From contig AP031354.1 of NCBI GenBank assembly GCA_037833965.1, positions 20,996,001-21,060,000 on the forward strand: a DNA stretch of 64,000 nucleotides, given 5' to 3'. Below, in pieces: positions 34,451 to 63,616 of the stretch. Each line of letters starts with the position of its first letter. The stretch's first letter is position 1. The translations under genes were made by a program, and so were the position numbers. The notes under the pieces are model-generated. The model saw only the letters and a program-made list of their open reading frames with translations. It made no database searches and was not told the DNA's origin. Source of the DNA: Marchantia polymorpha subsp. ruderalis (Eukaryota > Streptophyta > Marchantiopsida > Marchantiales > Marchantiaceae).

Positions 34451-34455
34451 AACTT
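34451..34455. other. Target-site duplication, left of element A
   Basis: AACTT at 34,451-34,455 is repeated as AACTT at 40,168-40,172. Removing one copy and everything between joins the chromovirus RT sequence sensibly, which supports this being the insertion footprint of element A. The terminal T may be shared with the element's TG end. Confidence 0.75.
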
Positions 34456-34770
34456 GTCATGTGTATCGACGATGGTGTCGATTTGAGTTCAGACACGTTA
34501 GATTTGAGTTTGAGGGGAGATACACGTTGGGACGCGGTACACGTTGGGACGCCCTACACGTTGGGATGCCATGCATGTTGAGGTCGACGACCGTGGGATA
34601 TATTCGAGGCTAGCTCGAAGAACTGTCAGTTCTTCGAGTTGAGCCTTTCGCGTCGGGGTTGATCCCCATAGCTTCGACCCTTATACTACTTGCAAATCGT
34701 GGGTTAGGCTCGACTCTTTGTACAGTTTGTGACATTTACCTTTCTTTTACTCGAAGAACTGAGACAGTGA
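34455..34770 (+). repeat. Left LTR (partial) of element A
   Basis: Starts TGTCATG like the LTR of B, contains the CTCGAAGAAC / GTTCTTCGAG hairpin (34,616-34,640) found in B's LTR, and has a TTTGTGACATTTACC segment matching the start of B's LTR-terminal repeat. The right boundary is uncertain because the sequence drifts from B after about 34,770. Confidence 0.55.
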
Positions 34771-34979
34771 ACGTCGATGTAGTGTACTCAGATTTTGGAT
34801 TTTTTTTTGTTTTCGGTTTTCTTTCCATGTTTTTGAGTTCAGTTCTCTCTTTGTGGTGTTTCACATCGTGTGTATCCCATCGCTTCTCATCTCAAAGTCT
34901 TGTTCCAGGAGGGATGAAATTTGAGCTGGACCGGTATATTAGCTCAAAGCAGTACATCATACGAATGAATGTATGAAAA

Positions 34980-36030
34980 GCCACATCTACTCGAGGGTAT
35001 AGAATCATACAGAAAACTGATATGCTGAATGACGTCACTCAATCGTACAGGGCCAACATTGCATCGATGTATCAATTACAGATTGGACAGTGGTGTCGTA
35101 TTCTACTCATCTCCTCCGCACGCCCTTGCACATGCGATGGCCGCTCGGGATAAGAGCTCCATCTTCGGACATGTCAAAACATATGCAGCATGACTTCTCC
35201 ATCGAAGCAGTCAAAAGAGCCAATTCCTGAAGAGACGAACTTGTAGAAGACTCATTATTATCTCCTTGGTCCGCTACGCTTGAGTGGAACATCGCCGATT
35301 GTTGGTGAAATGCTCCAGGTATTCCGGTCATTGTGAATGATTCAGCATGTGTTCTAGAGAGAGACTCTGAATACTCATTTGCATTCAAAGTATAGGAGGA
35401 GTATTGGGCAGGAGCATGCAGGAGTCCACACGATGCTGGGAATCTGACAAACGAAGAAAAGGAGAAAAGGAGGACCGATGTGGTGGAAGAGGCCCGGAAG
35501 CAAATAATTGCGCAACATTAATGCCGAGCCGGTAGAAACGGATTGGGAAATCCTCCTCGTCTCTTTTACCGCACCCCGTGCGCTTGGATCAGAGAGAAGC
35601 GCAGAATTCGATGCCACTCTCCTCACTTTCGCTTGTTGGAACCGGAAGAACCCGAGTGTTTTCTTGGATGCTCTGCCGCTTCGTTCCGCTTTCCATGCCG
35701 CGACTTCTGCACCACGAGTGATCGAGTTCCTTGTCGGTACGCGCCGTTCGTGAGTCGGGCAAAACCTCCCGCTGGCCCTCCGCGCCCTACTTCGGCAGCG
35801 CCAAGGTCCATTTCAGATCTCCACAGGAACAGCGCAGAGATTACTATCGTTACCTTAAAATAATCGCCCAGGCCTTTTTGACGATCTGTCCTTTGCATCG
35901 GCTTTCTCTCATGTCTGGGATGCTAATCTCTTCCCGCACTTCTGTGGCTCCAAAAGCAGCAGCACGACGGAAGGAGGCCCCCTACGGAGCGCGAGGTTAT
36001 CCGAGAAGAAAAGAGGAGTTTCTGTAATGC
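34980..36030 (-). pseudogene. RING-finger gene fragment carried in element A
   Basis: On the strand opposite to the element, frames at 35,623-35,898, 35,375-35,626 and 35,107-35,388 look protein-coding: a basic Ser/Gly-rich start, a segment ETRRISQSVSTGSALMLRN, and a polar segment ending SMEKSCCICFDMSEDGALI with PSGHRMC. The last is the first half of a C3HC4 RING finger (CCxC...GHxxC); the second half is missing and one zinc Cys is replaced by Ser. The family is like plant RING ubiquitin ligases with a C-terminal RING, but I cannot name it. The GC-rich part at 35,600-36,020 may be its former 5' end. It is probably a host gene piece picked up by, or inserted in, the element. Confidence 0.55.
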
Positions 36031-37335
36031 TTAGATTTACACTCTGAGAATGTCACAAAGTGTGCTATTGTAACGGACAGTAATAGTAGCTACGGTTTGA
36101 ATCGAAGTAGGCATTATTAAATCTGATGCAAATGGCCTTGGGATATTGAAAGTCGAAGAGAAAAGTCTTGTGGTTTTATAACGCAACTATTTTCAGTAGG
36201 TCTTTTTTTTCTTAAGGCCTTAGTTGTAGTTTTAATGTGGTAGGAAAATCCAAGAGCAAGGGTAATAGTAGTGGAAGAATCAAGTTGCTCCGGTGAGAGA
36301 GAAATAGAATTATTAGAGATGGTTTTATCATCCTTTGTATAAGGAAGTTTGTGACTGTGCACATGTTTGATCACTGAGAAGAAGAAAGAAAAAAGTCGAA
36401 GAGAAAAGAGAGAAAAAAAAAGAAAAAAAAAGAAAAAAATATTTTTTTTGAAGAGATTGAGAATTTGCACTCGGTCTCATTTATTACAATTTTTTAGTTG
36501 TGAAAATAATGGATTTATCATTATTACTTTTCCTATGGGTTCGGTTAGGGTAAATAGACTTTCTTTATATTCTTTGTCCCTATTTCTAGTGTGATGTGGA
36601 GGTATGAGGCGAAGTGCGGTACAACTCGGAGTGGAGATTTTCTCGGCTACTTAGTGGAAGAGGGGACATTGTAGGCCCTGGAGGCGGAAGGGTGGATATC
36701 ATCTTTGTGACGCAATGGACGACATCGCGTTGCAGGCGCTGGAGGTGGGAGATAGAAGGCGATGGACTTCGACTCGGGGTCGCGATGCGAGGCGATGTCC
36801 CTTGTGTTGTGTTGTTCTGTGCTGTGTTTCATTTCGGCTGGAGAGTCGTTGCTAGCTGTTTGCTTGTGTTTGGATCCTCTCCAGTCTTGCTTCTTGATGC
36901 ACGCCCATGTTTGGGTTGACGCTGATTTCCAGAGTAGTTTTACTCCAGTGTGCTGTCGATAGTGCAGCTGGATTTGATCACCGGCGCCTATCTTTGTTTC
37001 CCTCACGGTGAGACTGGAGTGATGACCAGTGGACCATGAAAGTCTTCTTGCGGTGATGACAAGTTAGGTTGCCCATACCCATAGTCAGTAGGGCTAGAGC
37101 TGGTTAGTGCAGGGACGAGGGCAGGTGGAATTGTGGCAGTGGTGCCGGTTGGTGAGTTAGTCATCACGAATGAGTTTGATGGTTAGTTGAGGACCGTGGA
37201 GGATTTACGCGGAGTGGGTTGAGGTATCGGCTACCTCATCCTAGCGCAGGAGTGGTTGCAGAGGCGCAGGGTGTGGCAGATAGCGGATCTTTGGTGGTGA
37301 TATCATCTAGGGTCTCACACTCGTGGACTAGGAAC
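36031..37335 (+). other. Element A leader
   Basis: Non-coding stretch before gag. It has a purine-rich low-complexity run at 36,380-36,445 and a GT-rich part from 36,590. From about 37,190 it aligns with the leader of B at the window's right end (shared phrase GGATTTACGCGGAGTGG). No primer-binding site could be found. Confidence 0.4.
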
Positions 37336-39093
37336 ATGGACGAGATGTACGGGGCCATGGAGGGCTCACGGCGGTACTTTGGTGCAGTGGGCACCATTGA
37401 GTTGGATGATTTCATCCAGGAGTTTGACACGTGGTGCGATATGCAGTTCTTGCGTAACCCCACGTTGTTTACACCCTTCTTTGCTTGGAAGGGGTTGTTT
37501 CAGCATCTGGAGGGGCCTCCCATGGATGACTACCATGAGTTTGGAAGAGATTATGCTGTGGAGATTGACGCATGGAGGCGTCATTGGTCTCCAAACTATA
37601 TGTCGATCACCCAAGGTGGTGTTGGTACCAGTGGAGGTGCGAGTGGTAGCATCACCGATGGTACTAGTGGAGCAGGTACCACCAACGATGCTGTTAGCGT
37701 TGCCAGCACAAGTGGGGAGACTACTGGCGTACCTTCATTCAGCCCCATTCCTGAGTTCTTCAAGAGGTTGAGGAAGAACTATAAGGGGGTGAGGACGGAG
37801 AAGTTGAGGAGTCTCCAAGAGTTTGAGCGGAAGACTGGTGAGAGTCTTCGGGAGGCATACACTCCTATACGGCGGTTGATCTCAGTTACTCACGGTGTAA
37901 CTGAGGCGCAGGCGGTCCAGTATTGGTACAGGATATTGGACAGAGAGTTACAGCGGAGGGTTCGGGATGCTACCCTCTTGAGCGATGCGTCACCTACATT
38001 GGCCTATGTGTTTGCTCTTTCTGAGAAGATTGAGCTTAACATAGTGGAGGAGAGAGTGGTGACTTCTTCATTCGCTAGAGACGTAGCCACTTCTTTTCGT
38101 GTCCCGCAGAGCACGGCACAGTCTAGACCCTTTGATGTTGGTAGTGATGGGGGTCGCGGAGCGCAGACACGACACCAGACGGCCGCTAGAGATACATGAG
38201 CACGTGCACCCGTGCCGTCGTTTGCTGGCCAGCAGCAAGGACCAGCATGTTGGACATGTGGAGGGGATCATCTGCGGAGAGATTGTCCCCAGGAGGCTGG
38301 AGGTCGGAGTGCACAGGCCAGACCCCAGTCAGCAAAGGTGGTGTGTGATCACTGTGGTCGAGCAGGTCATACTCGAGATCGGTGTTTTGACTTTCATCCA
38401 GAGTTGACATCTGGTGGTAGAGGTCGTGGTGGTGATACTTCCCGAGGTCGAGGTGGCCGTGCTCGTAGAGGTGGTCGAGGTGCCAGTGTAGTTGGACGCC
38501 CTGTAGCGAGCGCTACTTCGGCCACAGAGAGCGCGATGGCTGCCCGAATTGAGCAGTTGGAGCAGAGGCTCGCTGCTATGGCGAGTTCTGGAGCGAGCAC
38601 TTCCATCTCTTACGAGGAAGAGGATTTCTCTTATTTAGCGAGTGCAGCACAGGTGGAGGCATCGGTTGCAGTGACTAGAGGTGTAGCTCGAGCTCTAGAG
38701 CCACGCGGAGCAACAGGGGAGTTGGACCCTCAGAGGGGTGAGGGTGGGCGTCAGGCCAGACTTCCCCAGTCGTTCTTGTTGTCAGAGGTGGGCAGGACTT
38801 CATCCATAAGACCTGTACCACTAAGTGACCTTAGTGGGAGGACTGAGACATCTACGTCACGTGTTGTGGACACAGACACACCATCTAGTGCAGTGACGCG
38901 GATGGCTAGCTCAGTGATGAAATCTCCACTATTTTCATCTACGGAGCTGATAGACTCTGGGATTGACTTGGCTCAGGTGTTTCGTTTAGTAGCCACGTTT
39001 TGTGAATGTGGGAGTGTCAATGCTACGAGTGCCGAGATAGGCAAGGCTATTGTTGAGGAGCTATACTCTACGACTACATTGAGCAATGAGTAG
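37336..39093 (+). pseudogene. Element A Gag
   Basis: Gag begins at the ATG at 37,336 (MDEMYGAMEGSRRY...), in frame with a longer open stretch from 37,219. A retrotransposon Gag core with FERKTGESLREAYTPIRRLI follows a Ser/Gly/Thr-rich insert. After an in-frame TGA at 38,198-38,200 come two CCHC zinc knuckles, CWTCGGDHLRRDC and CDHCGRAGHTRDRC, and a Gly/Arg-rich tail. The TGA stands where B has Arg, and a TAG at 39,091-39,093 stands where Gln is expected. Gag would package element RNA; here it is split and probably dead. Confidence 0.85.
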
Positions 39094-39350
39094 ACATGGC
39101 AGGCGGCAGCGGCGCGGATGGAGTTCTTACCAGCCCGACCAGCCATTGATCGTGAGGGGATTCTCCCTGGTGTGTGTATGGTGGACAACCGGAGTGGTGT
39201 ATTTCGCTTGATGAGTGCTACAGGGCGGGTGTATGTCCCAGCTAGAGTGTTGTTGGATTCTAGTGCACAGCCCTTGATGTTGGGCAAGACAGCATGCATT
39301 AGTTTGGGAGTTCGGAGGTCCGAGTTGGAGCCTTATCCGTTCGAGTGGCA
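39094..39350 (+). pseudogene. Element A protease start
   Basis: The frame contains RVYVPARVLLDSSAQPLMLG, the retropepsin-type active-site loop with the usual DSG changed to DSS. It breaks off after RRSELEPYPF, where the large internal deletion begins. B has the same segment at about 56,359-56,560. Confidence 0.7.
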
Positions 39351-39380
39351 ATGGAGTGACGCTGATTGATCACCGGACCA
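39351..39380. other. Internal deletion junction of element A
   Basis: Protease sequence passes within about 30 bases into integrase sequence (CTGATTGATCACCGGACCACG) that in B lies about 4 kb further on. The missing part includes the methyltransferase, RT and RNase H. The exact breakpoint cannot be set by eye. Confidence 0.7.
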
Positions 39381-39899
39381 CGTCTCGAGATCATCCAGAG
39401 GCAGATGGCTTGGCTGAGCGTGTTGTCTAGACAGTAAAGAGAGCGTTGCGCAAGTATGGCCTATAGAAGGGGCATCTTGGGGATTGGGATATTTACACCA
39501 TCAATTTATAGGTTCTGTGTGGGAGACTACGTCTATTTACAACAGACTGCACCGACTACGTTGGATGTGACGGCAGGACGCACTATCTTGCGATTGCGAG
39601 AGGTGTTACCTTTTGGAGTTCTCATGTTGGAGGGTCGTGATGGTGTCGTTTGGAAGGATCATGTGCGCAACTGTGCGCCATGCCACCTCCCAAACGTTGA
39701 TGGTACTATGGATCCAAGCTTGACGATTGTACGTGCCGGCTTGAGGTGCATGTTATGTGGGTCAACTGATCAGGCTGCCCATATGTTGGTGTGTGATAGG
39801 TGTTCTAGGGGATGGCACATGTCGTGCTTGACTCCACCTATTGATGTTGTTCCTACTGGACGGTGGGTTTGTCCTCGATGTTCTTCAGAGGGTAGATGA
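39381..39899 (+). pseudogene. Element A integrase tail with PHD finger
   Basis: Starts with the integrase E-motif region (GLAERVV, then TAG for Gln, then TVKRALRKYG). After a break comes a frame with FCVGDYVYLQQTAPTTLDV, a strand-rich GPY/F-like module and a PHD finger of C4HC3 spacing: CMLCGSTDQAAHMLVCDRC, WHMSC and WVCPRC. PHD fingers commonly read histone H3 tails; in this place it replaces the chromodomain of chromoviruses. Confidence 0.8.
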
Positions 39900-40048
39900 C
39901 TTGATCTTCACATGTTATGAATTGCAGATATGCGACTAACGATGGGGCGACATAGCACCCGGCCTACTGGTTAGCGCACCCACGAAGGTGCATAGTATGT
40001 AGTTGTAGATAGAGCTACCTGGGAGTCAGAGGGACCTGATCGCCAGCT

Positions 40049-40167
40049 AGGGGGACGAGTTGTGATACCTTTGTGTGTGGACACTCTCGTTCCTTGTGTA
40101 TATGTGTGAGTTGTGAGTAGAGCATGTCAGCGATGTATGATGTATGTCGATACCGAGTCGCACGACA
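40049..40167 (+). repeat. Polypurine tract and terminal repeat of element A
   Basis: CTAGGGGGACGAG (polypurine tract) is followed by TTGTGATACC... ending CGCACGACA, which abuts the target duplication. This 107-bp segment corresponds to the 120-bp repeat found twice at the matching end of B. The LTR core with the CTCGAAGAAC hairpin is missing here. Confidence 0.65.
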
Positions 40168-49745: not shown

Positions 49746-50703
49746 TTGTACGAGTTAGAATGAGTAGCTTATGAGGAGTTATGACAAGATTAGTTAGAAT
49801 TCGTCTACGGCCAAAGATCTTCGGATCTTCAACGCAGTCTTTTTTGGACATTGCAAGAGCTGCGTCTTCGGCGAAGACATATGATTCAATTTCAAATCGC
49901 GCAACGGACCGGAAGACGGTCGCACGCGTCGGGAATTCTAGTGGGCGCGGGAGGAGGCAATGTTATGGCTTCAAGGGTAAGGGCAGTACGAGGAGTCCTC
50001 GCGCCGACATTGCGATATCGAGCAAGAACAAGCGAGCGAGAGAAAGAGCAAAATCGACCAACCTTGCTAGCAGCGAAGACGCGAATCAAAGTCATGGGGC
50101 CAAAGAAGAGTGACAAAGTGCGGGAATTGGTTCCCATGAAGGTGCCCTACGAAGACTTGGGATCCTTCAGACGCGAGCTGAGCTAGTTGCGACTTGAATT
50201 CCTCTTTTGGAATTGGAATTGCGTCTAAGCGAGTATCTGTAAGGAGATAATGGATAAGAACGTGACCGAGGGTGTGGAGCTTTGAGTTAATCCCATGATG
50301 TGAACAATTGAGCATTGGACGAAGGTGATGGGACTGTGCGCAGGTACCGACGCAGACCTTTTGTTTAATAAGAGTAGCGTGGGACTTACGCGCACCGAAG
50401 AATTTTCTTACGGACCACTCTTCAGTTCCGGGAGGCAGGGGACGAACGGGTGGAAGACAGCGGATTACATAGATCCAAAGAGAAGAGCGATTGCGTTGGA
50501 AATTATGCACATCTTGCGACCAGCACGCACGACGTATGTGACGGCCTTACAGGTAGGGTTCTTTGAAGGAATCTTGAAGGGACAGAAAGTATACTGGACA
50601 AGGATCTTTCACGATCTTGTCTGGGTGAATGCGTCCAATCGGTGGACAGAAACATTGGTCAATCATCTCACTCCCTTGTTGGTGATTTTCTACCGAGGCA
50701 TGG
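49746..50703 (+). pseudogene. K4: 5' half of a copy, interrupted by element B
   Basis: Leader (49,746-50,095) aligning with the K2 leader, including the GTCTTCGGCGAAGAC hairpin. The ORF starts MGPKKSDKVRELVPMKVPYE at 50,096, with stops near 50,186, 50,226 and 50,275, then the long open stretch GLCAGTDADLLFNKSSVGLT to LTPLLVIFYRGM. At 50,704 the coding sequence runs straight into the LTR end of element B, so B inserted here. The flanking CATGG (50,699-50,703) would be the expected duplication; its partner lies outside the window. Confidence 0.75.
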
Positions 50704-51114
50704 TGTCGTGCGAATACATATCGCCATACACTCTACATTGCTGACATGCTACTCACATACACATACGCACACACATACACACATATAAGGCGCGAGAGAG
50801 TCCACACTCAAATGTCACAACTGAAAAGAACGGGAGATTCCCCATTGGAATTCCCGTCGGTCAATTACCCTACTGGCAACAAACCGTCACCGTCACAAAC
50901 ATGAGTCAAGCCCAACCCACTCCACACTCGGAGAATCCAGGTCGACGCAAAGGGGAAAGTCATTCTACGTTCCCAACGCTTCCAGGCTCGACTCGAAGAA
51001 CGTTAGTTCTTCGAGCCGTCCCCGACTGTATACCCCTCGTGACCCGAACCCTAACTTCACGTCTAAATATAGTAAGTGTCTAAACTGCGTGAGCCGACTC
51101 GTAACTACATGACA
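50704..51114 (-). repeat. 3' LTR of element B
   Basis: 411 bp, in element direction TGTCATG... to ...CGCACGACA (TG...CA). It holds the CTCGAAGAAC / GTTCTTCGAG hairpin (about 50,993-51,018). Its last 120 bp (50,704-50,823) are nearly identical to 51,117-51,236. The ends match the outer ends of element A (34,455 and 40,167), which supports the boundaries. Confidence 0.65.
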
Positions 51115-51116
51115 GC

Positions 51117-51236
51117 TGTCGTGCGAATACATATCGCCATACACTCTACATCGCTGACATGCTACTCACATACACATACGCACACACATACACACATATA
51201 AGGCGCGAGAGAGTACACACTCAAATGTCACAACTC
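51117..51236 (-). repeat. Extra copy of the LTR-end repeat next to the polypurine tract
   Basis: About 120 bp nearly identical to the LTR's own end, placed between the LTR start and the polypurine tract CTAGGGGGGCGAG (near 51,233-51,247). A corresponding segment follows the polypurine tract in element A. This makes the LTR boundary ambiguous: either the LTR is 411 bp with its end duplicated inside the element, or two short repeats bracket a 293-bp piece. Confidence 0.6.
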
Positions 51237-51403: not shown

Positions 51404-53242
51404 CTATGAAGTACATCGAGGACAAACCCATCGTCCAGCCGGAATAACATCGATAGGCGGAGTTAGGCACGACATGTGCCATCCCCTAGAGCACCTATCA
51501 CACACCAACATACGGGCCGCCTGACCAGTTGACCCACATAGCATGCACCTCAAGCCAGCACGTACTATCGCTAAGCTTGGGTCCATAGTGCCATCTACGT
51601 TTGGGAGGTGGCATGGCGCACAATTGCGCAGATGATCCTTCCAAACAACGCCGTCACGACCCTCCAACATGTGAACTCCAGAAGGTAACACCTCCCGCAC
51701 TCGCAAGATTGTGCGTCCCGCCGTCACATCCAATGTCGTCGGTGCAGTCTGCTGTAAATAGACGTAGTCTCCCACATGGAATCTACGAATCGATGGTCGA
51801 TAACCTCCTCCCCGAATGGTTGCATATCGCAACGTATCTCTATGTTGAGCAATCGCAAGATTCTCAAACGCTGCAGGCATAACTCTCCGAAAGAGCTCTG
51901 CACGCTGAGAACATACTCTCACCCACATATTCGGGTCATCAAGGTTCACCACCTCGCTAGACTCACGACGAATCGATGTTGGCAAGTCTGGATCTCGGCC
52001 GTACAATAGAAAATATGGTGAGAAGGAAGCCAAGGATGCCTGCCGACTGAACCGATATCCCATGGCCAACCACGGTAACTGGATATCCCAGTCCCCAAGA
52101 TGACCTTTATGCATGCCATACTTGCGCAACGCCCTCTTCACCGTCTGTACAACACGTTCAGCTAAACCATCCGCCTCTGGATGATCTCGCGACGTGGTCC
52201 GATGATCAATCAGTGCCTTGTCGCACAAGACCTGAAACTCCGTTCCCTGATCGGTCAACACCTCAGCTGGTGCACCATAGTGACTAAGCACTCTGTCAAG
52301 AAAAGCATACGCTACTCCCTCACTTGCCTTGTCAGGTAATGCCACCAACTCAATCCACTTGGAGAAATGCTCCACCATCACCAACACATACCGATGATGT
52401 CGTACAGTCAAAGGTAGTGGTCCAGCAAAGTCCAAACTCCAACGGTAACCCAACCCCATGATGGGTAATGGATGTAACACTGGTGTCAGGGCATTGAATG
52501 ATGCCCTCACTCGATCACAAACCATGCAACGTGATACCAACTGCTGTACCTGAGTATGCATACCACGCCACCAATACTGACCAAGGAGTAAGCTGTATGT
52601 ACGCTTCACTCCAAAATGTTCCAACTCCTCATGAGCATGCCTCACAATGCGTGCTCTCTGGGCTGGATGTGGTACTACTCGTACCCTACCGTCCTCCCAC
52701 ACTCGGAGAACATGTGATCCCTCCAATCGGTACCTCTTGGCCCGTTGGAGAACACGATCTCGCTCCTTGGCACCCACTGTGCCTGGCACCATGCTGGTCC
52801 GTAGGAACTCCAACACCAATGCATCATCGTGTACATCACGCTGATCCACATCACCATCCTCAACCTCAGGATCTGAAGATCGACCATCTACTCTCTGACT
52901 AGAGTAAGATGTCAGATGATCCTCTCTGCTGGAGTTCCCACGTAACCAACACATGAAGGCAGATGCATGCCAACCAGGCACCATCTCCTCGTCAATCTCA
53001 CCATGCCATCTAGCTCCGGTGTCATCCTCCTGGCTAGTGCATGGGTTTTGACTCAAACCATCGGCATCTAGGTTCGCAACTCCAGGTCTATGCACTACCT
53101 GAAAGTCGTACTCCTGTAAGATGAGAGCCCACCGTGCAAGCTTCCCCGTAAGCTTGTCGGACTTCATCAACCACTTGAGCGGTTGATGATCAGTAACAAG
53201 GGTGAACTGCGTACCAAACAAGTAACACCTGAAGTGCGCCAC
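51404..53242 (-). CDS. Element B RNase H end, integrase and PHD finger
   Basis: A 612-codon uninterrupted frame. It opens with the RNase H tail (FTLVTDHQPLKWLMKSDKLT). The integrase zinc-binding part has HAHEELEHFGVKRTYSLL and CMVCDRVR. The catalytic core shows WSLDFAGPLP, VLTDQGTEF and HPEADGLAERVVQTVKRALR (D, D, E). After a linker comes FHVGDYVYLQQTAPTTLDV and a GPY/F-like module, then a C4HC3 PHD finger: CMLCGSTGQAARMLVCDRC, WHMSCLTPP and WVCPRC. Integrase inserts the element; the PHD finger probably tethers it to chromatin by binding a histone tail, as the chromodomain does in chromoviruses (inference). An in-frame TGA at about 53,243, where Trp is expected, separates it from RT. Confidence 0.9.
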   Translation of the reverse strand: MAHFRCYLFGTQFTLVTDHQPLKWLMKSDKLTGKLARWALILQEYDFQVVHRPGVANLDADGLSQNPCTSQEDDTGARWHGEIDEEMVPGWHASAFMCWLRGNSSREDHLTSYSSQRVDGRSSDPEVEDGDVDQRDVHDDALVLEFLRTSMVPGTVGAKERDRVLQRAKRYRLEGSHVLRVWEDGRVRVVPHPAQRARIVRHAHEELEHFGVKRTYSLLLGQYWWRGMHTQVQQLVSRCMVCDRVRASFNALTPVLHPLPIMGLGYRWSLDFAGPLPLTVRHHRYVLVMVEHFSKWIELVALPDKASEGVAYAFLDRVLSHYGAPAEVLTDQGTEFQVLCDKALIDHRTTSRDHPEADGLAERVVQTVKRALRKYGMHKGHLGDWDIQLPWLAMGYRFSRQASLASFSPYFLLYGRDPDLPTSIRRESSEVVNLDDPNMWVRVCSQRAELFRRVMPAAFENLAIAQHRDTLRYATIRGGGYRPSIRRFHVGDYVYLQQTAPTTLDVTAGRTILRVREVLPSGVHMLEGRDGVVWKDHLRNCAPCHLPNVDGTMDPSLAIVRAGLRCMLCGSTGQAARMLVCDRCSRGWHMSCLTPPIDVIPAGRWVCPRCTS

Positions 53243-53245
53243 AGC

Positions 53246-54379
53246 TCACACCGCTGCCAAGCACTCTCCCTCGTACGAACTATACCGCGACTCCGCTGCA
53301 TTGTTCGAACGACTAGCGTACGCAATCACAAACTCCTTGCCCTCATCATCACGCTGCGTCAACACCGCTCCAAGTCCCAACATACTCCAATCAGTGTGCA
53401 ATTGGTATGGACGACCTCTGATAGGTCTCCTCAAGATGGGAGCGGCCACCAACCTGGCCTTGAGTTCAATAAAAGCTCTCTCCTGCTCATCTCTCCATTG
53501 CCACTCCTGATCTGACTTCAGCAACTGGTTCAAAGGCTTGGCTATAGCACTAAACCCCTTCACATACCTCCGGTAGTAGTTCGCTAAACCCATGAATGCA
53601 CGAACTCTACTCACATCCGTGTGACGAGGGATGCTTGCAATAGCCTCCACCTTTGCTTGCTGAACTCCTAAACCACCTGGGTATATCACATGACCCAAGT
53701 ACTCAACCTTCTCCTGAAAGAACTTACAATTCCCAGGATGTAACCTCAAACCATGAGCCCTCAATCGCTCAAACACAATCTGCAAGTGTATCTGGTGTTG
53801 CTCCACAGTGTCACTAAACACCAAGATATCATCAATGTAACATCTGACAAAATCCAGCTCCGCCAGGATTCTGACCATAACCCTCTGAAACTCGGCAGGT
53901 GCATTCTTCAACCCAAAGGGTAAGAATCGCCACTGATACAAACAATCCTTGCCGTGGGAGTTGACGCCCCAAAACGGTGTCTTGGTTTTGTCCTCATCCC
54001 GAATTGGCAACTGATGGTATCCTGCCCGAAGATCCAAAGTACTCAAAATCCTCGCATGTTCCACCACATCGAAGATCTCCTCCGGTGTAGGCATGGCATA
54101 CTTATCGGACTTCGTCTGCCGATTGATAGGACGGTAGTCTCCACACATGCGCCTATCCGTGTAGTTGCCATGTACATCCTTCTTCACCGGCATGACTGTG
54201 GCTGACGCATACTCACCATGCAATAACTCGACTAGTCCAACCTCCAGTAGGTCCAACGTCCTACTCCGAATCAAATCACTCTCCATCTCACTGTATCGAT
54301 AAGGACGACGGAAGATTGGCGTATCACTAGCCAGTTCTATCCGTATACCGGGTCCAATCAACGCACCCAACTCCTTCAT
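53246..54379 (-). CDS. Element B reverse transcriptase and RNase H start
   Basis: A 377-codon frame with a full gypsy RT: IFRRPYRYSEMESDLI, ASATVMPVKKDVHGNY, MCGDYRPINRQTKSDKYAMP, ILSTLDLRAGYHQL, WRFLPFGLKNAPAEFQRVM and the catalytic YIDDILVFSDT. The connection region has FMGLANYYRRYVKGFS. RNase H begins with PYQLHTDWSMLGLGAVLTQR. Both RT aspartates are present. The printed start Met is not a true start; the frame continues upstream through a stop from the protease-methyltransferase part. The product ends at a TGA in place of Trp. Confidence 0.92.
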   Translation of the reverse strand: MKELGALIGPGIRIELASDTPIFRRPYRYSEMESDLIRSRTLDLLEVGLVELLHGEYASATVMPVKKDVHGNYTDRRMCGDYRPINRQTKSDKYAMPTPEEIFDVVEHARILSTLDLRAGYHQLPIRDEDKTKTPFWGVNSHGKDCLYQWRFLPFGLKNAPAEFQRVMVRILAELDFVRCYIDDILVFSDTVEQHQIHLQIVFERLRAHGLRLHPGNCKFFQEKVEYLGHVIYPGGLGVQQAKVEAIASIPRHTDVSRVRAFMGLANYYRRYVKGFSAIAKPLNQLLKSDQEWQWRDEQERAFIELKARLVAAPILRRPIRGRPYQLHTDWSMLGLGAVLTQRDDEGKEFVIAYASRSNNAAESRYSSYEGECLAAV

Positions 54380-54520
54380 ACAGAAAGCAAAACAACTCCT
54401 ATAGTCTTGTAGGAATTATGTCAATCGTCGCCTCTCTCCTCCTGTGATCTGGGAACCAATCAATGGCTCCCATTCCTGCTCCATAGGCACATTAGAGGAA
54501 GGCGACACTGTCAATGGTTG

Positions 54521-55740
54521 CTACGCTACACACTGCAAAGAAGGGTTCTCCGTACTCTCCTTCGTAGCCACCTCCACCTGAGAATCCTCTCCAACTGCAT
54601 GGGCTGCAACTCTGGCAAGTCCTTTCGTCACGTCCCATAAACTCCAAGGATGCCGAATATCTCGCCTGTCGCCCCCAGCCATTGCCACTACCGTCCCGGT
54701 AGGCAATGAGCTAATAAGTGGTGTAACGACCACCAAATCTGCGCGCAAATGGCGTTGCTCGGCCAAACCCAAGCTCACAATCCACGTCAAGCAGTTCAGG
54801 TCTATAGCCTGACCCAAAACCTGACGACGCGACGCCTCTGAAACTAAAGAAGCCGCGGTCACACCAGTAAGAAACCCCATCGCACGCTCTCTCTCATCAG
54901 CGTTGGGCTCCACCAACTAATGTAGGGTACTGTCCCATAGTAGTCCAGGTCCCCCATCACGATATGCATGTGATGCCGGATAACTGACAAATGTAGGTAA
55001 AGCCATCCGAGGCTGACCTACGCGGTTCACCAACGCCATAGGTGACCTGTCAGCAACTCTCACTACTTGAGAGTGTTAGGAAACATCCAAGATACTGTCA
55101 ACGGTGAGTGTAGGATCACGCTGCACCGAATCATAGGCATGACGCAATATCTCACGTGGCAAAAGGTTGGTCCACCACAAACGTGCACGATGAGCCCGGG
55201 ATCCAACCTTCGCAACATCCACCAATACTGCTGATCCAATCCATGCTTGGACTTGATGGACACTCGCCATCAACTAGGCCCGAGTGTCACCCAACAATGG
55301 TACATTCTCCAGAATGTATGCTGGAGAACGTGTCTACTGCACTTGGAGATGACGTAACACTCGCATCATCTCCCAAAACATCCGAGATCTGGGATCATGC
55401 AACCTTGTCCCATGTCCAGCGCGTGTGTGTCCCTGACATGGCCAACCCGCAATCACCATATCAATATGGCCAACACGGTCAAGGTCTGGCGCCCCCAGCA
55501 ACAAAATGTCTGAAGGCAACGCCTTCTGGAATCCTCGGACAGCTGATCGCGGCAACAACGAAGGAAAACGCCGCATCAACTGTGCAACATGTCGTGAAGA
55601 GACTCGACGTGCAGTCTCGTCCTTCTCCACATACAAGTATCTCCGTACGAGAATGCCTGACTGCAACACTGCAGCCAAACCTGTGCTGATTCCACCAATA
55701 AGATCCAGCAAACAAACACCCTCTGAGGAATACACCCATC
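54521..55740 (-). CDS. DNMT3-like cytosine-5 DNA methyltransferase in element B
   Basis: Lies between protease and RT. C5-methyltransferase motifs in order: motif I VCLLDLIGGISTGLAAVL (S-adenosylmethionine binding), YLYVEKDETARRV (II-III), DMVIAGWPCQGHTRAGHG (IV, catalytic Cys codon at 55,436-55,438), AYILENVPLL (VI, ENV at 55,301-55,309), VLVDVAKVGSRAHRARLWWT (VIII, strongly DNMT3-like), TFVSYPASHAYR (IX region), and ERERAMGFLTGVTAA with ASRRQVLGQAIDLN (X). The order is standard, not the permuted DRM order. In-frame stops (TAG near 55,332, 55,273 and 54,917; TAA near 55,074), mostly at likely Gln positions, and a frameshift near 55,738 interrupt it. All catalytic motifs remain readable, so an ancestral active enzyme is likely; this copy is probably inactive as a whole. 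Such methyltransferases have been reported in retrotransposons of charophyte algae and dinoflagellates. Confidence 0.87.
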
Positions 55741-56950
55741 TGCAGTAGGTGTAGTAACCAATGGAGACAATGCGCTAGACCCACTAACTAGCCGATCAGC
55801 TGAAGCCCTGTCTGGCTCTGCTGGTAAAGAGGCTTCACTCCAAGCCTTTTTCACCAACCTATCAGCCTCCAACTTTAATGCCTGGCACGAACTCCACAGT
55901 GGAACATCTAAGGGTGAAGTCACCGCCGCTGTGAAACTCACGACCTCCTCCACATCCTCGTAGAGTGAGGTATCGTCGGCAGACATGTTCCCCTCCAACA
56001 AGTCATCGGGCCAGGTAAGCACTCCGCTAAAACCCGCAACAGATGCCAAGACCGCTGATGAAGATCCAAGAGGTCGATCCCGAGAAATAAATCTCACTGG
56101 CAGCTCGCTAAGACGTCCATCTCCGGACTACCAACCAGGACGATATGCGGCAGTCTTCGTCCAATAGTCCATCCGAAAGCCCATCGGGTATAACACCACT
56201 CCACCAACAAGCACATCATATGACTCTGCTGATGTAACCACAGCACGAACTCCAAACTGCGAGCTATCATGAGGATGATCATGCCTCAACTGCACCGCTA
56301 TGCTCTCCCTAGTCATAAAGTAAGACCTGTTGCTGGCGCCACCAAGGGATGTCTAGATCTAGAATGGGCAAGGTTCCAACTCTGACCTCCGAATGCCCAA
56401 ACTAATGCATGCAGCCTTGCCCAACATCAAGGGCTGTGCATCAGAATCCAACAAAACTCTGGCTGGGACATACACCTGTCCAGTAGAACTCACTAACCGA
56501 AATAGACCACTTCGGTTGTCCACCATACATACACAAGGAACAATACTCTCGCAATCAATGGCTAGGCAAGCTGGTAAGGACTCCATCCTCGCCGCTGCGG
56601 CCTGCCAAGTCGTCTCCTCGAACAATGTAGACCTTGGGGATGAGTCCTCAACTATATCCTCACGTATCTCGACACTCGTAGCAGCGACTCTCCCATGCTC
56701 ACACGACGTGGCAACTACCCGAAAAACTCGAGCCAAATCAATACTAGAGTCTATCAACTCCGTGGCTGAAAACAATGGAGATCGCAAGACTGAAGTGGCC
56801 ATCCGCATCACTGCACTAGATGGCACGTCTGCGTCCACAACAGATGATGTAAGAACCTCAGTTCTCACTCTAGTGTCACTAGGCGGTGCAGGTCTCATAG
56901 ATGAACTGCTACCCACCTCTGACAACAAAAAGGACTGGGGAAGCCTAGAC
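55741..56950 (-). pseudogene. Element B protease and linker to the methyltransferase
   Basis: The frame at 56,359-56,928 has a Ser-rich start, then WQAAAARMESLPACLAIDCE, VYVPARVLLDSDAQPLMLGK (retropepsin loop, with DSG changed to DSD) and CISLGIRRSELEPCPF. After two TAGs it continues with NRSYFMTRESIAVQLRHDHP, YDVLVGGVVLYPMGFRMDYW and, after another TAG, ELPVRFISRDRPLG. The linker at 55,780-56,000 is acidic and Ser-rich. The protease would cut the polyprotein; the altered active-site Gly suggests this copy is inactive. Confidence 0.75.
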
Positions 56951-58197
56951 TAACGTCCACCCTCACCCCTCTGAGGGTCCAACTCCACAGTCGCACCACG
57001 TGGCTCTGAAGTGCGAGCACCACATCTGGTCACTGCAACTGATGCCTCAACCTGTGCTGCACTGGCCAAATAGGAGAAATCCTCTCCCTCGTAAGATGTG
57101 GAAGTGCTTGCCCCCAGACCAGCCATAGCAGCAAGCCTCTGCTCCAACTGCACAATCCGAGCAGCCATAGCGCTCTCTGTGGCGGAAGTAGCACTCGCTG
57201 CGGTACGCTCAATGGCCCCGGTACCTCTACCACCTCTGCCACCTCGGCCTCGCGGAGCATCACCTCCACGACCTCTACCTCCAGATCTCAACTCAGGATG
57301 AAGGTCAAAGCAACGCTCTCGAGGATGACCCGGTTGATGACAATGATCACAGGTCACATGTGCCGGCTGTGGCCTAGCATGTGGAGTTTGTACCTCTCGC
57401 TCCTGGGGACAATCCTTCCTCATATGACTTCCTCCGCATGTCCAACATGACGGTCCCTGTGGCTGGCCCGAAAATGAAGGCAGTGGTGGCCGCGCACTAT
57501 GCTCTCTGTGACCTGAAGGATGTCGTGTATGACCTCCACGACTCCCACTTATGGGGCGAGACTGTGCTGGGCTATGTGGGATACGCGAAGTAGTGGTCGT
57601 GTCCCTCGCAAATGTAGACGTCACCACCCTCTCCTCCATCATGTTAAGCTCAATCTTCTCAGAAAGAGCAAACACATGGGCTAATGTGGGTGATGAGTCG
57701 CTCATGAGAGTAGCATCACGCACTCTCCTCCGCAACTTTCTGTCCAGGATCCGATACTAGTACTGGACAGCCTGTGCCTCAGTCACACCGTGAGTAACTG
57801 AGATGAGCCGTCGCATACGAGTGTATGCCTCACGAAGACTCTCACCAGTCTTCCGCTCAAACTCTTGGAGCCTCCTCAACTTCTCCGTTTTCACCCCCTG
57901 ATAATTCTTCCTCAATCTTTGGAAGAACTCAGGAATGGGGCTAAACAAAGGTACGCCACTAGCATCTCCTCTCGTGCTGCCACCGGCAATGCTAACGGTA
58001 CCGCTGTTGGTACTAGTACCAGTTGCGCCAATTGCTCCACTGGTACCCTCGCTGATGCTACTACTCGCACCTCCACTGATGCCGATACTCGCAGCTCCAC
58101 TGGTACCCACACCACCCTGGGTAATGGATGAGTAGTTCGGAGACCAATGCCGTCTCCATGCATCAATCTCTGCAGCATACTCTCTCCCAAACTCATG
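56950..58197 (-). pseudogene. Element B Gag, main part
   Basis: Gag core with FQRLRKNYQGVKTEKLRRLQ and GESLREAYTRMRRLISVTHG, a Gly/Ser/Thr-rich insert, then after a TAG (Trp expected, about 57,757) MRRRVRDATLMSDSSPTLAH, two CCHC zinc knuckles (CWTCGGSHMRKDC, CDHCHQPGHPRERC) and a Gly/Arg-rich tail. The frame ends at a TAG (Gln in A) near 56,951. The right end is the insertion point of element D; the rest of gag is at 63,617-63,809. Confidence 0.88.
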
Positions 58198-58202
58198 ATA
58201 AT
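58198..58202. other. Target-site duplication, left of element D
   Basis: ATAAT at 58,198-58,202 is repeated at 63,612-63,616. With D and one copy removed, B's gag reads through in frame with element A's gag (DDYHEFG). Confidence 0.9.
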
Positions 58203-59211
58203 TGTAATAACCCACTAAAGGCTAAAACTGCAATATAGTGGTAGAAAGGTCGAACCCACAGGGACAGAGGAACACACAGGGTACAAAGTGTCACGTTTTA
58301 ACAGACTATTGAGGAGTTTGAATTCTCAGGCGACTGTCACTCCCAGAAATACTGCAAGTGTCCACTCGGAGCGCACTCGAAGGTCGCACAGTGCAGCGTA
58401 ACACACACACACACACACACCTGAAACTACAGAAACACAACCCAGAGATCCGTTAGGACCTCTACTTCAAGATTTCAGGGGGAAAGTCTCTCACGAGCAC
58501 ACTCGGCAAAGCTGCGGGCAGTGACTTCCAACTCCGGCTTTTACAACACTTCCACTAGCTTGCTGCTAGTGTAGGAAACCCGGTTTGGACTGCCTACTTC
58601 GGATCGAAGTCACTCCTACGCGGTGAACAACACTCTCAACTCACAAAACGCGCAGAGAACACAGGTCCGCACTGAAGGACTCACTGTGAAACATTCCAGT
58701 AACACAACAACAGTCTATTGAAGAGTTTGAATTCTCAAGCACTTGTCATTCCCAGAAATACTACAGGGGTTACCCTCAAGGCACCTGCTGCAGCGTAACC
58801 TGAATTTACAACCAAGGCTTACACGAAGTAGCAAAACTTCACTTTGGCATTCAGGGGAAAAATCCCAAGGAGTACAATCAGAAAGAAACACTCGAAGGTG
58901 TAGGGGCGAAACTGTTCAAGTATCTAACTAGTCACTGGCTCTGAGCATCGGCAGTCACCCGCAGGTGCAGATCCGAACTACTCAAGTCTCTAACCAATGT
59001 ACTAGCTCTGAACATTCGGCCGAAGGCCTTCAGCTACAAAATGCGGAACGCTAAGTTGTAACTCCTCGTGCGTGGTGACAGAACTCAAGGACACAAACAC
59101 GCAAAGGAAATGGGTTCCTGATCTGCACTTCTGATGGGAAAGAACCCCAGGCAAAACGCCTGGAACTATTTTATACCTTCTAAGTCCTACCTAGCACTAC
59201 ACTGCACTACG
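58203..59211 (-). repeat. D 3' region with duplicated subterminal block
   Basis: The block TCTATTGAGGAGTTTGAATT...CCCAGAAATACTGCA occurs at about 58,306-58,373 and, slightly altered, at about 58,713-58,767. Related blocks sit at the same end of K2 (44,925-44,975) and K3 (49,327-49,375). An AC microsatellite lies at 58,400-58,421. Near the tip the minus strand reads GTGGGTTCGACCTTTCTACCA, resembling the T-arm and 3' end of a tRNA. Confidence 0.65.
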
Positions 59212-62200
59212 CTACACGCCTGCACGGAACCACGCTACACTACACTCCGCGGAACCTGTACTACGTCTCCTGCGCGGCCGACTGCCGCGCACTAACTCCC
59301 TACCCTGCCACTCTTCCGCTCGACTACGCAGTCCCAACCGCTGCAACGCCGCGGACACCTCCCCCTCGAGGGCGGACATGGTATCCTGTGCCTTCGACAG
59401 AAAGGCCTCGAGCTTCTTCGCTACCTTCCGCCGACTCCTACTGTCGCCTGACAACAACCCGGCTGCGCGCAATTCAAACTCACGCAGTGTGAGTTTCTCC
59501 TGCGCCTTCACTTCCCAGTGGGCGTAGCCCTTGAGACAGTGGGCGACTCGCCTCGCCGTCTCCACCTTCGTGCGATCCGCCTCCTTCCTGCGATCCTCTT
59601 CAATCGTCACTAATTGCGATTCGGCTTCAGCACGTTGCGCTCTCAATTCGCCACACTCTGACTGCAAACTGCGGATTAATTCTTCATCCGCCTGCCGTGC
59701 GAGCTGACATTGTTCCAACAACCGCGTCTGTCGCACGAGCTCCTCTGACAAAATCCGATTCTGGGCCTGCTCAGAATCGAGTGCTTCCTTGACCTTCACC
59801 TGCTCCTTGGTGAGCTCGCCCAGTTTCTCATCTTTCATCTTCTCGGAGTGCTTGTAGAACTTCTGATTAAGCTTGTACTGTCCCCACAAGCACTCATGCT
59901 TCTCCTTCAAGTCCCTCAACTCCTGGTTCACTCTAGCTAATAGCTTGCTGGTGTGGACGTTAGTGCGAGTCCGCCTGCGCACTAACTCGATGTAAGATCC
60001 CGGCTGGAGTGGGTCGGCGTATTTATCGACCTTGCGATCCAAGTACCGCAGCAACGGAATCACCTGCTCAGAGAGCGCCGCCGCCGGCGCTCCAACAATT
60101 TCCTCCTCCTCCTCCTCGGTGTCTTCTGCTCCTGACATTTCTTCCGTGGAGCCTCCGTCGTCATCATCCGAGTGGAGAATTTCAGTCGCCATTGATTGCG
60201 TCGGCGACTGCCCCGAGTGGGGCTGCACATCATCGACGTGTGCTGCCTGCGAAGGCACGGCTGCAGCCTCGCTGCTCGTCGCCAAAATGTCTAAGGCGGA
60301 AGGCGAATGTATCCGAGCGGCATTCCCGTCGCTCGCTGGCTGATTGCCTACCGCATTCTCTCTGTCGCCGTCGTCCGTCGCCGAAGGCGATTGAGCGGAG
60401 GGTGGCTGCGCGGGGTTGGATTGCGCGTCGCGCATCGAGATTTCATCCCGCAGACAGTCACTCCGCTCTTCCGTCTGCTGCTCCCTTGATCGGTCCGTGG
60501 GGGCTGTGCCCGGCCTGTGCGCAGGCGCATTTGCCGGCGCCTTGTCCGTCGCAGGCGTAGCGCCGCGGACATCTATCGCCGAAGGCGACATGGCCGGGGG
60601 CCGCACGCCCGATGTTCCTTGGCCTATAGGCCCTACCGCCGAAGGCGCATCTATCGGCGTACTTCCCGCCGATGGTGCGGCCTCCGCACGCTCTCTGCTC
60701 GTATCCCCTCGGCTCGAAGGCCCTGGCGCCGAAGGCGCGAATTGCGGCGCGTGGTGCGCCGGAGGGTCTGGCCCCGAGGGCCGGTGTCTCGTAGGCGGTT
60801 CTTCCGCCGGCTCCTTCCCCTTCCTACGTTGGAACGGGGGTGATTCTTGCCTGTGCACAGGCGGCACGTGCGGAGGTGTTCTGTGCACAGGTGACCTGTG
60901 CACAGGCGACCTGTGCACAGGCGAGCGCCTGTGCACAGGCGGACTGCTCCTTCCCACGCGTAAGCGTAAATCCACGTCCACTTGTGTTCGCCGGTCCGCG
61001 GAGGCTCGTCCGTCCGCGGAGGTTCGCCTGTGCGCAAACGGAACATCTGTCCGCATCGCACGTGGTAACTCCGGAGGCCCCTGGCCCGTAGGCGGCCTCT
61101 CTCCCGACGAGGTTGCAGCGTGGCCCGTTGCTCCTGCGGTCGTCCGCGCTTCCTCTCGCCTCTCTGGCGACGCACTTCCTATCTCCGTCGCAATCGTCGC
61201 CGTGTCTGCACTGTCAGCTGGTAACACCAGTCTGCGTGCCTTCTGCTTCGGCCGGCTGTATGGCTCGCACAGCGGCCGCGGTCGAATGGGAGCAGAGGGT
61301 TCTTGATGCTGCTCCTCTTCGGACTCTTCCCTCCATCGCCGCTTCCGCGGCACTCGCGCTGCAGGGGTGTGTCTCCCTTCGTCCCTCCGTCTCGACGGGG
61401 TAGAAGTCGGTGACTCCTCTGCATCAGTATCGACCTCGTTCTCCCGCACATACTTCCCGGGATGGTCGATGGACAATGGCGGAAAATGTTCAAGCTCCGC
61501 CGCCGTCAAACAATTCCGCTGTCGATAAAAATTGATGAGGAAAGGAGAAAGATGGTTTAGAGTTCCCCCCTTCTCCTCAAACGCGTGCTGTCGCATCACC
61601 CTGTGCAGGATGCTCGCCCAGTGAATTGGAGTTCCCTCGATGACGCACTCCACAAAAGAGACCTGCCACAATGTGATGTAGCAGGCGCGGTGCGGCTGCA
61701 GTAATTGCATCAGCGCCGCGGACAAAGTCCGGCGAAATCGATCTTTGTAATCACGGGTCCTGTACCCATTCTTGGTAGACCTCCCGGTCTTGAACAGCTC
61801 CACAAATTGCGCCTCTTCTTGCTTGGTCACCTTGATGCTCTCACTGTCGAAAAGGAGATGCCCTGGCATGCCAGCACATCTTCCCAACGCCTGCGCCCAA
61901 TCTTGGACTGTCCACCGATCAACATGCGGACGCAATCCGCGCGAGGGTGGTCCCTGTGGCTCTAGCCACTCGCGCACCATATTCGCGCAGATGTAATTCC
62001 ATCCCCATAGCAAGAAATCGAGCTTTCTTGCTATTAAGCGCTCTTCGAAAGCGCGCAGCCCGTTCTGCGGCAGGCGAAGTGGCACCATCCGCAATCTGCT
62101 CGGTCTCGTCATTGCGTTCCTGGGGTTCGCTCGCCCGCTCATTCTACTTCCGCACTGTCCGCGTTTCTTTCTCTCTCGGCAAACTCTAATCGCTCTCAAT

Positions 62201-63611: not shown

Positions 63612-63616
63612 ATAAT
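63612..63616. other. Target-site duplication, right of element D
   Basis: ATAAT, the partner of 58,198-58,202. Confidence 0.9.

What the first reader, a model, noticed from the sequence alone, without database searches (positions are those of the whole stretch)
54521..55740. DNMT3-like cytosine-5 methyltransferase inside a plant Ty3/gypsy polyprotein
Seen: C5-methyltransferase motifs I, IV (WPCQGH), VI (ENV), VIII (AHRARLWW) and X in the standard order, between protease and RT of element B, on the same strand. Known: such captures were described in retrotransposons of a charophyte alga and of dinoflagellates; I do not know of one in a land plant with these genes. Inference: the element may methylate its own copies or its targets, to persist under silencing, to influence host defence or to set insertion sites.
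Basis: partly seen in the sequence, partly recalled or inferred. Interest (0 to 1): 0.92.

Follow-up and report, generated by a model that had tools for sequence, protein, structure and literature searches.

The report
Liverwort retrotransposon carrying DNA methyltransferase
A jumping gene of the liverwort Marchantia carries its own DNA-methylating enzyme, kept open and under selection in many copies, and related elements in other liverworts, peat mosses and environmental samples carry it too, so a silencing tool of the host has become a lasting part of the parasite.

Summary
Window 54,521-55,740 (minus strand) holds a C5 methyltransferase with motifs I-X in order, between protease and reverse transcriptase. 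The genome is Marchantia polymorpha. This copy is broken (four premature stops, a frameshift upstream), but the domain belongs to the family: 94 scored copies, 24 open gag-PR-methyltransferase frames, dN/dS 0.14. Sequence and predicted fold are closest to DNMT3A/B.

Beyond the finding: (1) ORF1 ends right after the methyltransferase at a kept UAG-CAA-CCA, so the enzyme would be made with Gag, and RT-RNaseH-IN-PHD only by read-through (re-initiation not excluded). (2) Repeats are DIRS-like and split (A1...B1-GC-A2-B2), but ends are TGTC...GACA with 4-bp target duplications and a DDE integrase. (3) Relatives occur in Calypogeia, Riccia and Sphagnum. A wider integrase-PHD lineage carries the enzyme in two positions, before RT or between RNaseH and integrase; enzyme and integrase distances correlate.

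The kind is known (KnitGypsy-Dnmt3 of Klebsormidium, 2018). My searches of an open-access library showed no paper on land plants, the UAG, the ends or the relocation. Self-methylation of the element's DNA is my favoured function, untested.

The parts
54521..55774 (-). DNMT3-like C5 methyltransferase region, same frame as the RT reading frame; domain proper about 54,790-55,725; 4 premature stops in this copy
   Evidence: PF00145 E 6.8e-9
55691..55711 (-). motif I (LLDLIGG here)
   Evidence: DL[FI]GG in 42 of 43 copies
55427..55444 (-). motif IV WPCQGH (catalytic Cys)
   Evidence: PCQG kept in 41 of 43 copies
55298..55312 (-). motif VI ENV
   Evidence: ENV kept in 41 of 43 copies
55172..55195 (-). 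motif VIII AHRARLWW
   Evidence: AHRAR kept in 42 of 43 copies
54794..54817 (-). motif X LGQAIDLN
54521..54523 (-). conserved UAG followed by CAA CCA; end of ORF1, proposed read-through codon before RT
53246..54415 (-). reverse transcriptase and first part of RNase H (RVT_1 E 1e-29)
51404..53245 (-). rest of RNase H, integrase H2C2 and DDE core (rve E 7.8e-11)
51413..51547 (-). C-terminal PHD finger of the integrase (PF00628 E 1.3e-10)
56359..56949 (-). protease region (VLLDSDAQP here; VLLDSGAQP in a copy with open frames)
   Evidence: no Pfam match
56950..57756 (-). gag C-terminal part with two CCHC-like knuckles
   Evidence: Pfam only zf-C2H2_10, E 0.004, below cut-off
57757..58221 (-). gag (Retrotrans_gag E 0.0037, below cut-off); an earlier part of gag lies at 63,613-63,989 beyond an insert; the element's 5' end is outside the window
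51117..51235 (-). split repeat B1, preceded by the polypurine run GGGGGGCG
50823..51116 (-). GC dinucleotide (51,115-51,116) and split repeat A2 with the kept hairpin CTCGAAGAAC...GTTCTTCGAG
50704..50822 (-). split repeat B2, 3' end ...CGCACGACA; 98% identical to B1
34455..40167 (+). second copy (element A): A1 at 34,455-34,749, gag-protease part, internal deletion of methyltransferase/RT/most of integrase, B1 at 40,058-40,167; flanked by AACT on both sides

Best explanation
SHOWN: the methyltransferase is a regular, selected domain of a high-copy Ty3/gypsy family of Marchantia polymorpha with DIRS-like split repeats. It is DNMT3-type in sequence and predicted fold, with motifs I-X not rearranged. 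ORF1 is gag-CCHC-protease-methyltransferase and ends at a conserved UAG-CAA-CCA; ORF2, in the same frame, is RT-RNaseH-integrase-PHD. INFERRED, most likely first: ribosomes mostly stop at the UAG, so the methyltransferase is made in large excess over RT and integrase. The protease frees it and it stays with the Gag particle. It methylates the element's own newly made double-stranded DNA, probably at CG sites, before or just after integration, so that new copies enter the nucleus already bearing the host's mark of its own DNA. Integrase joins the abutted ends (GACA-GC-TGTC) to target DNA with a 4-bp duplication, guided by a PHD finger of the kind that reads the H3 tail. My probabilities: integral selected domain 0.97; DNMT3-type 0.95; ORF2 by UAG read-through 0.75; acts mainly on the element's own DNA 0.45.
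Against: No activity, expression or methylation data here. The one tested relative of the same kind, KnitGypsy-Dnmt3, gave no methylation in yeast, called inconclusive by its authors; SymbioLINE-Dnmt gave none either (PMC5890265, section 10). An ATG stands 13 codons after the UAG in 42 of 43 copies (the 43rd, L020, was read from a premature stop), so re-initiation could make ORF2. The 9 nt at the stop are well conserved but not unique locally: 7 of 50 nine-base windows, itself included, are as low. CpG sites do not decay faster than other C sites (C>T 0.0075 CG, 0.0119 CHG, 0.0076 CHH per site per copy), so no CG-specific footprint is visible. Five integrase-PHD relatives of the second group span RT to integrase without a detected enzyme, so it is not indispensable; 41 of the first group also have none in the chain, but their upstream ORF is not seen. 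In P0060, P0173 and P0224 methyltransferase and RT share one frame without a stop, so the UAG is not universal. All matches scored in the genome are capped lists.
Confidence: 0.6

Rival explanations
1. The methyltransferase acts in trans on the host: it alters methylation of host genes, of silencing loci or of target sites, for example to find or prepare insertion sites or to disturb host defence.
For: It would be made in excess if the UAG reading holds. About 119 PF00145 matches of the element's range exist. The integrase carries a chromatin-reading PHD finger. Excess retrotransposon DNMT was proposed to have shaped the Symbiodinium methylome (PMC5890265, discussion read).
Against: K. nitens, with a like element, has an ordinary plant-like methylome (PMC5890265, section 9). 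No data here on host loci.
Confidence: 0.2
2. The domain limits the element itself: methylating its own promoter after insertion keeps copy number tolerable for the host.
For: C>T change exceeds T>C in the copies in all three contexts, consistent with methylated, silenced copies. De Mendoza et al. raise a like option (PMC5890265, discussion).
Against: Decay in a silenced copy is expected from host enzymes alone. Open frames and near-identical repeat pairs suggest recent insertions.
Confidence: 0.15
3. The fold is kept but the substrate is RNA (genomic RNA or a primer), or the domain serves as a nucleic-acid-binding part of the particle.
For: It is on the Gag side of the polyprotein. Motif IV is PCQ, not the PCN of DNMT3A (alignment).
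Against: Catalytic motifs kept in 41-42 of 43 copies. Closest sequence and fold are DNA enzymes, DNMT3A/B; DNMT2 is far weaker (best E 4e-7).
Confidence: 0.1
4. ORF2 is made by re-initiation at the ATG 13 codons after the UAG, not by read-through.
For: That ATG is present in 42 of 43 copies and its surroundings are conserved.
Against: The two frames stay in register in both subfamilies. The stop is UAG in 95 of 100 listed places, with CAA CCA behind it, the TMV-type leaky context (CARYYA rule recalled; leaky UAG in TMV seen in passages of PMC2754532). The predicted start of the separate RT ORF differs in relatives.
Confidence: 0.2
5. Chance insertion of a host methyltransferase gene into one copy.
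For: None found.
Against: 94 scored copies, other genera, purifying selection, correlated trees.
Confidence: 0.01

Closest known systems
KnitGypsy-Dnmt3 of Klebsormidium nitens (de Mendoza et al. 2018, PMC5890265; abstract, sections 9-11 and passages read)
   Same: Gypsy-type pol with a non-rearranged, intron-less DNMT3 domain in the polyprotein; DIRS-like arrangement of repeats with gypsy domains; [quoted passage not shown] plant-line host.
   Different: The parts I read place the domain in the Pol ORF and mention no stop before RT, no PHD finger and no target duplication; bryophytes appear only as hosts of ordinary DNMT3. The Marchantia family has the domain upstream of a conserved UAG. I could not compare sequences: no K. 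nitens entry is named among the listed hits.
SymbioDIRS-Dnmt3 and SymbioLINE-Dnmt of dinoflagellates (same paper)
   Same: DNMT captured by retrotransposons; SymbioDIRS domain active on CG in yeast.
   Different: Different retrotransposon classes (DIRS, LINE); independent captures by the authors' account.
DIRS/PAT-type retrotransposons with split direct repeats (general features recalled; seen as a search listing only)
   Same: A1 - ORFs - B1 - A2 - B2 arrangement.
   Different: DDE integrase (rve) instead of a tyrosine recombinase; TGTC...GACA ends; 4-bp target duplications.
DNMT3A/DNMT3B
   Different: No PWWP or ADD domain found by Pfam in ORF1; motif IV PCQ; about 24% identity; part of a retroelement polyprotein.
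Plant DRM enzymes
   Same: Related catalytic domain; two exons that I read as host DRM by their motif order lie in this genome.
   Different: DRM has the C-terminal motifs before motif I; the element's enzyme does not.

Membership tests
Ty3/gypsy (Metaviridae-type) pol | order protease - RT - RNase H - integrase (DDE) | tested here: met
   RVT_1, RT_RNaseH, H2C2, rve in this order; protease by motif LLDSGA only
Ty3/gypsy (Metaviridae-type) pol | two ordinary LTRs at the ends | tested here: not met
   A1 ... B1-GC-A2-B2; only A at the 5' end, in 3 of 3 copies read at both ends
DIRS/PAT | tyrosine recombinase, no target duplication | tested here: not met
   rve integrase found and no tyrosine recombinase match at E <= 0.001 in the two frames of one copy; 4-bp duplications in 3 of 3 copies read at both ends
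DIRS/PAT | split direct repeats | tested here: met
   B1-GC-A2 exact in 9 of 14 loci L031-L044, which include those three copies
KnitGypsy-Dnmt3 kind | gypsy pol plus DNMT3 domain plus DIRS-like repeats, under purifying selection | tested here: met
KnitGypsy-Dnmt3 kind | common descent with the K. nitens element | not tested
   no K. nitens sequence was available under a name
DNMT3 | catalytic domain closest to DNMT3, motifs I-X not rearranged | tested here: met
DNMT3 | de novo DNA methylation | not testable with these tools
   needs expression
DRM | rearranged motif order (C-terminal motifs before motif I) | tested here: not met
programmed UAG read-through | conserved in-frame UAG with CARYYA between two selected frames | tested here: met
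   the CARYYA rule itself is recalled
programmed UAG read-through | fusion protein made | not testable with these tools
   needs reporter or proteomics

The most novel reading that the evidence does not exclude
This is one tip of an old lineage of Ty3 elements in green plants and algae, marked by an integrase ending in a PHD finger, that took up a DNMT3-type methyltransferase once and kept it through most of its radiation. In one branch (bryophytes and relatives) the enzyme is read with Gag, before RT, set off by a leaky UAG. In the other it has moved between RNase H and integrase. The element's split LTRs are explained by joining of a circular DNA whose abutted ends (GACA-GC-TGTC) are opened by a DDE integrase, like the circle junction of IS3-type elements. 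DNA methylation by the element would then be part of its replication cycle and not a recent accident.
Probability: 0.35. Interest if true: 0.9.

Novelty: new variant of a known kind. Interest (0 to 1): 0.76.

Why it matters
Cytosine methylation is the host's main mark against transposons, so a transposon line that keeps its own DNMT3 for a long time raises an open question: what does the mark do for the parasite? Marchantia polymorpha is haploid and transformable (recalled), has many open copies, and in one published list has only MET, CMT and DRM enzymes of its own (PMC5784723, passages), so the question can be tested there. The UAG makes a clear prediction: the enzyme is a bulk particle protein, not a rare pol product. 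The ends give a testable route for an element that mixes DIRS repeats with a DDE integrase. A practical point: the element's ORF1 is annotated as a Marchantia gene (Mp_4g09160 is 100% identical over 1,278 aa to ORF1 of copy L037), so counts of plant DNMT3 genes may include it.

Tried and rejected
Chance insertion: rejected. Ordinary LTR search in the window: no ordinary LTR pair, explained by the split repeats. Viral contigs with the methyltransferase profile: 15 loci (L054-L068), short matches of 26-43% identity, not looked at further. Literature for PHD-bearing gypsy integrases and for green-algal cases: nothing relevant by title and abstract start among the 2 and 12 papers listed. A host DNMT3 gene in this genome: PF00145 scored 123 of 290 candidates, about 119 with the element's match range; of the other four I fetched two, which I read as DRM exons, and left two unclassified. 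So I cannot say that a host DNMT3 is absent. CpG footprint of self-methylation: not seen. Element A as a one-repeat circle product: not decidable, since recombination between B1 and B2 gives the same form. Pairing of P0017/P0165, P0089/P0215 and P0094/P0194 as same-contig rests only on equal contig lengths in the tables. The methyltransferase tree has no host DNMT3 as outgroup, so 'captured once' is not proven.

Rows dropped: dN/dS left out L001 (window), L004, L019, L020, L033, L042, L043, L044, and per region those with poor alignment (numbers). The mutation count left out L004, L013, L015, L019, L020, with L006 as reference (24 copies, window copy included). UAG count: L043 had no anchor. 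L020's first stop was a premature one; its UAG is the second. In the co-inheritance test only chains with both domains long enough were used (32, plus Marchantia and the three contig pairs).

Full report
WHAT IS THERE. The minus strand of 58,221-50,704 carries most of a Ty3/gypsy element: gag with two CCHC-like knuckles, a protease motif, then a C5 methyltransferase with motifs I, IV, VI, VIII and X in standard order and in one frame. RT, RNase H, integrase and a PHD finger follow. Pfam finds PF00145 at E 6.8e-9, RVT_1 at 1e-29, rve at 7.8e-11 and PHD at 1.3e-10. This copy is damaged: three TAG and one TAA inside the domain, a frameshift near 55,740, a stop in RNase H, and an insert of 5.4 kb in gag. 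Its 5' end lies outside the window.

THE HOST. The window lies in a held genome of 241 Mb in 9 contigs. ORF1 of its copy L037 is 100% identical over 1,278 aa to the annotated protein Mp_4g09160 of Marchantia polymorpha subsp. ruderalis (P0105), so the host is M. polymorpha.

A FAMILY FEATURE. The domain finds 94 scored matches on all 9 contigs, of 830 candidates. The RT of the family finds 81 scored matches, of 3,904 candidates. 59 have a scored methyltransferase match directly upstream and 11 more a PF00145 match within 1.6 kb upstream: 70 of 81. Of the other 11 I read three; all keep some of the methyltransferase frame before RT, from a whole domain split by an inserted piece (L048) to about 60 nt of its tail (L050). 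PF00145 gives 123 scored matches in the genome, about 119 with the element's match range; 24 lie in open frames of 1,351-1,365 aa, the size of an open gag-protease-methyltransferase. Between two subfamilies dN/dS is 0.142 for the methyltransferase, 0.068 for RT-RH and 0.207 for protease plus linker. PCQG is kept in 41, ENV in 41 and AHRAR in 42 of 43 copies.

THE STOP. In 43 of 43 readable loci a TAG stands at the same place between methyltransferase and RT, followed by CAA CCA in 41 and CAA CAA in 2 (L043 not readable). A genome pattern with the codon left free gives 124 places; of the 100 listed, 95 read TAG, 1 TAA, 2 TAT, 1 CAG, 1 AAG. ORF2 is in the same frame, and its RT-RH part is under stronger selection than the parts of ORF1 measured. 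Predicted ORFs of relatives end at the matching place: 98 aa after motif X in Marchantia P0105, 100 in P0002 (Calypogeia), P0072 (Sphagnum) and P0004 (unnamed). The simplest reading is leaky termination in a TMV-type context (the CARYYA rule is recalled; leaky UAG of TMV in plants seen in passages of PMC2754532), so the methyltransferase is a Gag-side product. Against certainty: an ATG 13 codons later is also kept (42 of 43), and 7 of 50 nine-base windows nearby, itself included, are as conserved as the stop window. P0060, P0173 and P0224 have methyltransferase and RT in one frame.

THE ENDS. Three copies read at both ends show A1 (288-294 bp) - about 10 kb - B1 (112 bp) - GC - A2 - B2, with A1 = A2 at 99.3-100% and B1 = B2 at 100%. 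The outer ends are TGTC and GACA and the flanks give 4-bp duplications ccat, tact and taga. B1-GC-A2 is exact in 9 of the 14 loci L031-L044, which include these three, and in the window copy. A polypurine run precedes B1, and the sequence just after A1 (CTCGAAGAACTG) is complementary to one arm of a hairpin inside A. From this I infer: LTR in replication order is B-A; priming by the RNA's own 5' end, as in Tf1 (recalled); reverse transcription gives B-A...B-A; end joining gives the exact A|B seam seen at the 3' end; integrase opens the B-GC-A junction. Element A in the same window has one A and one B between AACT repeats: either a one-repeat circle was inserted, or B1 and B2 recombined later.

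RELATIVES. The enzyme occurs in Calypogeia fissa, Riccia sorocarpa, Marchantia paleacea and Sphagnum species, and in many unnamed metagenome proteins. Searching with integrase-PHD gave 356 hits, 120 listed; of the 119 new ones held, 46 carry the methyltransferase, some only in part, by my own profile. Two placements exist: before RT, and between RNase H and integrase (17 proteins spanning RT to integrase, and 27 with the enzyme next to integrase but no RT in the chain, one of these a Marchantia gene model, P0063, that skips RT). Named members of the second group are Volvox (P0197 with part of the enzyme; P0229 without it in the chain) and Haematococcus (P0257, none in the chain). In the integrase tree (117 chains) the two placements fall in two groups with support 0.999 and 0.607 on midpoint rooting; the first holds 3 chains with enzyme and RT together and 41 with no enzyme in the chain, Marchantia's ORF2 among them. 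In the methyltransferase tree (118 chains) the second placement is one clade with support 1.0. Distances of the two domains correlate (r 0.66, n = 36; r 0.77, n = 30 within the second placement; 0 of 2,000 permutations each). Five proteins of the second group span RT to integrase without a detected enzyme, two of which I read (P0232, P0260). So the enzyme has travelled with this integrase for long, has changed place, and can be missing. Without host DNMT3 in the tree a second capture is not excluded.

WHAT IT DOES. I favour methylation of the element's own DNA in or near the particle. For: Gag-side place, kept catalytic residues, CG activity of a dinoflagellate relative (PMC5890265, section 10). 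Against or open: the K. nitens domain gave no activity in yeast (inconclusive by the authors), no CG-specific decay is visible, no expression data here. The PHD finger is closest to those of CHD4, KMT2C/D, PHF12, DPF2/3, PHF21A and KDM5, with UHRF1 and AIRE lower in the list; that several of these read the H3 tail, some only when unmodified, is recalled.

WHAT IS KNOWN. De Mendoza et al. 2018 (abstract, sections 9, 10, 11 and passages read) describe KnitGypsy-Dnmt3 in K. nitens, with DIRS-like repeats. A 2025 paper (PMC12344493, section 5 and passages read) repeats that some DNMT3 lie in retrotransposons of streptophytes and dinoflagellates. Schmid et al. 2018 (PMC5784723, passages) list MET, two CMT and two DRM for M. 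polymorpha. One search listed 20 papers holding Marchantia, DNMT3, methyltransferase and transposable; I looked at passages of six (PMC12344493, PMC9516144, PMC6453930, PMC8566409, PMC10952607, PMC8616336), which show no retrotransposon DNMT in bryophytes, and saw the other 14 only in the listing. Searches showed no other paper on such an element in a land plant (one search listed two, one of them, PMC9487137, seen only as a listing); none on a PHD integrase or green algae, by listing. Only the open-access library was searched.

Noticed in passing
window 34,455-40,167 (+): Second copy (element A) lacking methyltransferase, RT and most of integrase, with one A and one B repeat between AACT target duplications.
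   Followed up: partly
window 58,198-63,612: 5.4 kb insert in the gag of element B with a 1,010-aa minus-strand frame without a Pfam match above cut-off and many short CTGTGCACAGGCG-like repeats; class unknown.
   Followed up: partly
window 46,856-50,744: Two diverged stretches in opposite orientation (77-78% complementary); one holds an open frame of 380 aa without a Pfam match above cut-off.
   Followed up: no
P0105 (Mp_4g09160), P0113 (Mp_6g11220), P0136 (Sphagnum fallax): Element ORFs annotated as plant genes; the latter two gene models appear to leave out the stretch where the UAG lies.
   Followed up: partly
P0200, P0201, P0227, P0230, P0274, P0276 and others: Metagenome polyproteins with the order RT-RNaseH-methyltransferase-integrase-PHD.
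   Followed up: partly
P0219 (Calypogeia) against L022; P0189 (Riccia) against L039: ORF2 protein identity of 87% over 484 aa and 77% over 520 aa; slow change or horizontal transfer, not tested for lack of DNA.
   Followed up: no
P0164 (EukProt transcript): A transcribed RT-integrase-PHD frame of 1,083 aa, 70% identical over the searched part; species not named in the output.
   Followed up: no
window 25,985-26,235: Inverted repeat of 115 bp arms, 89% complementary, 21 bp apart.
   Followed up: no
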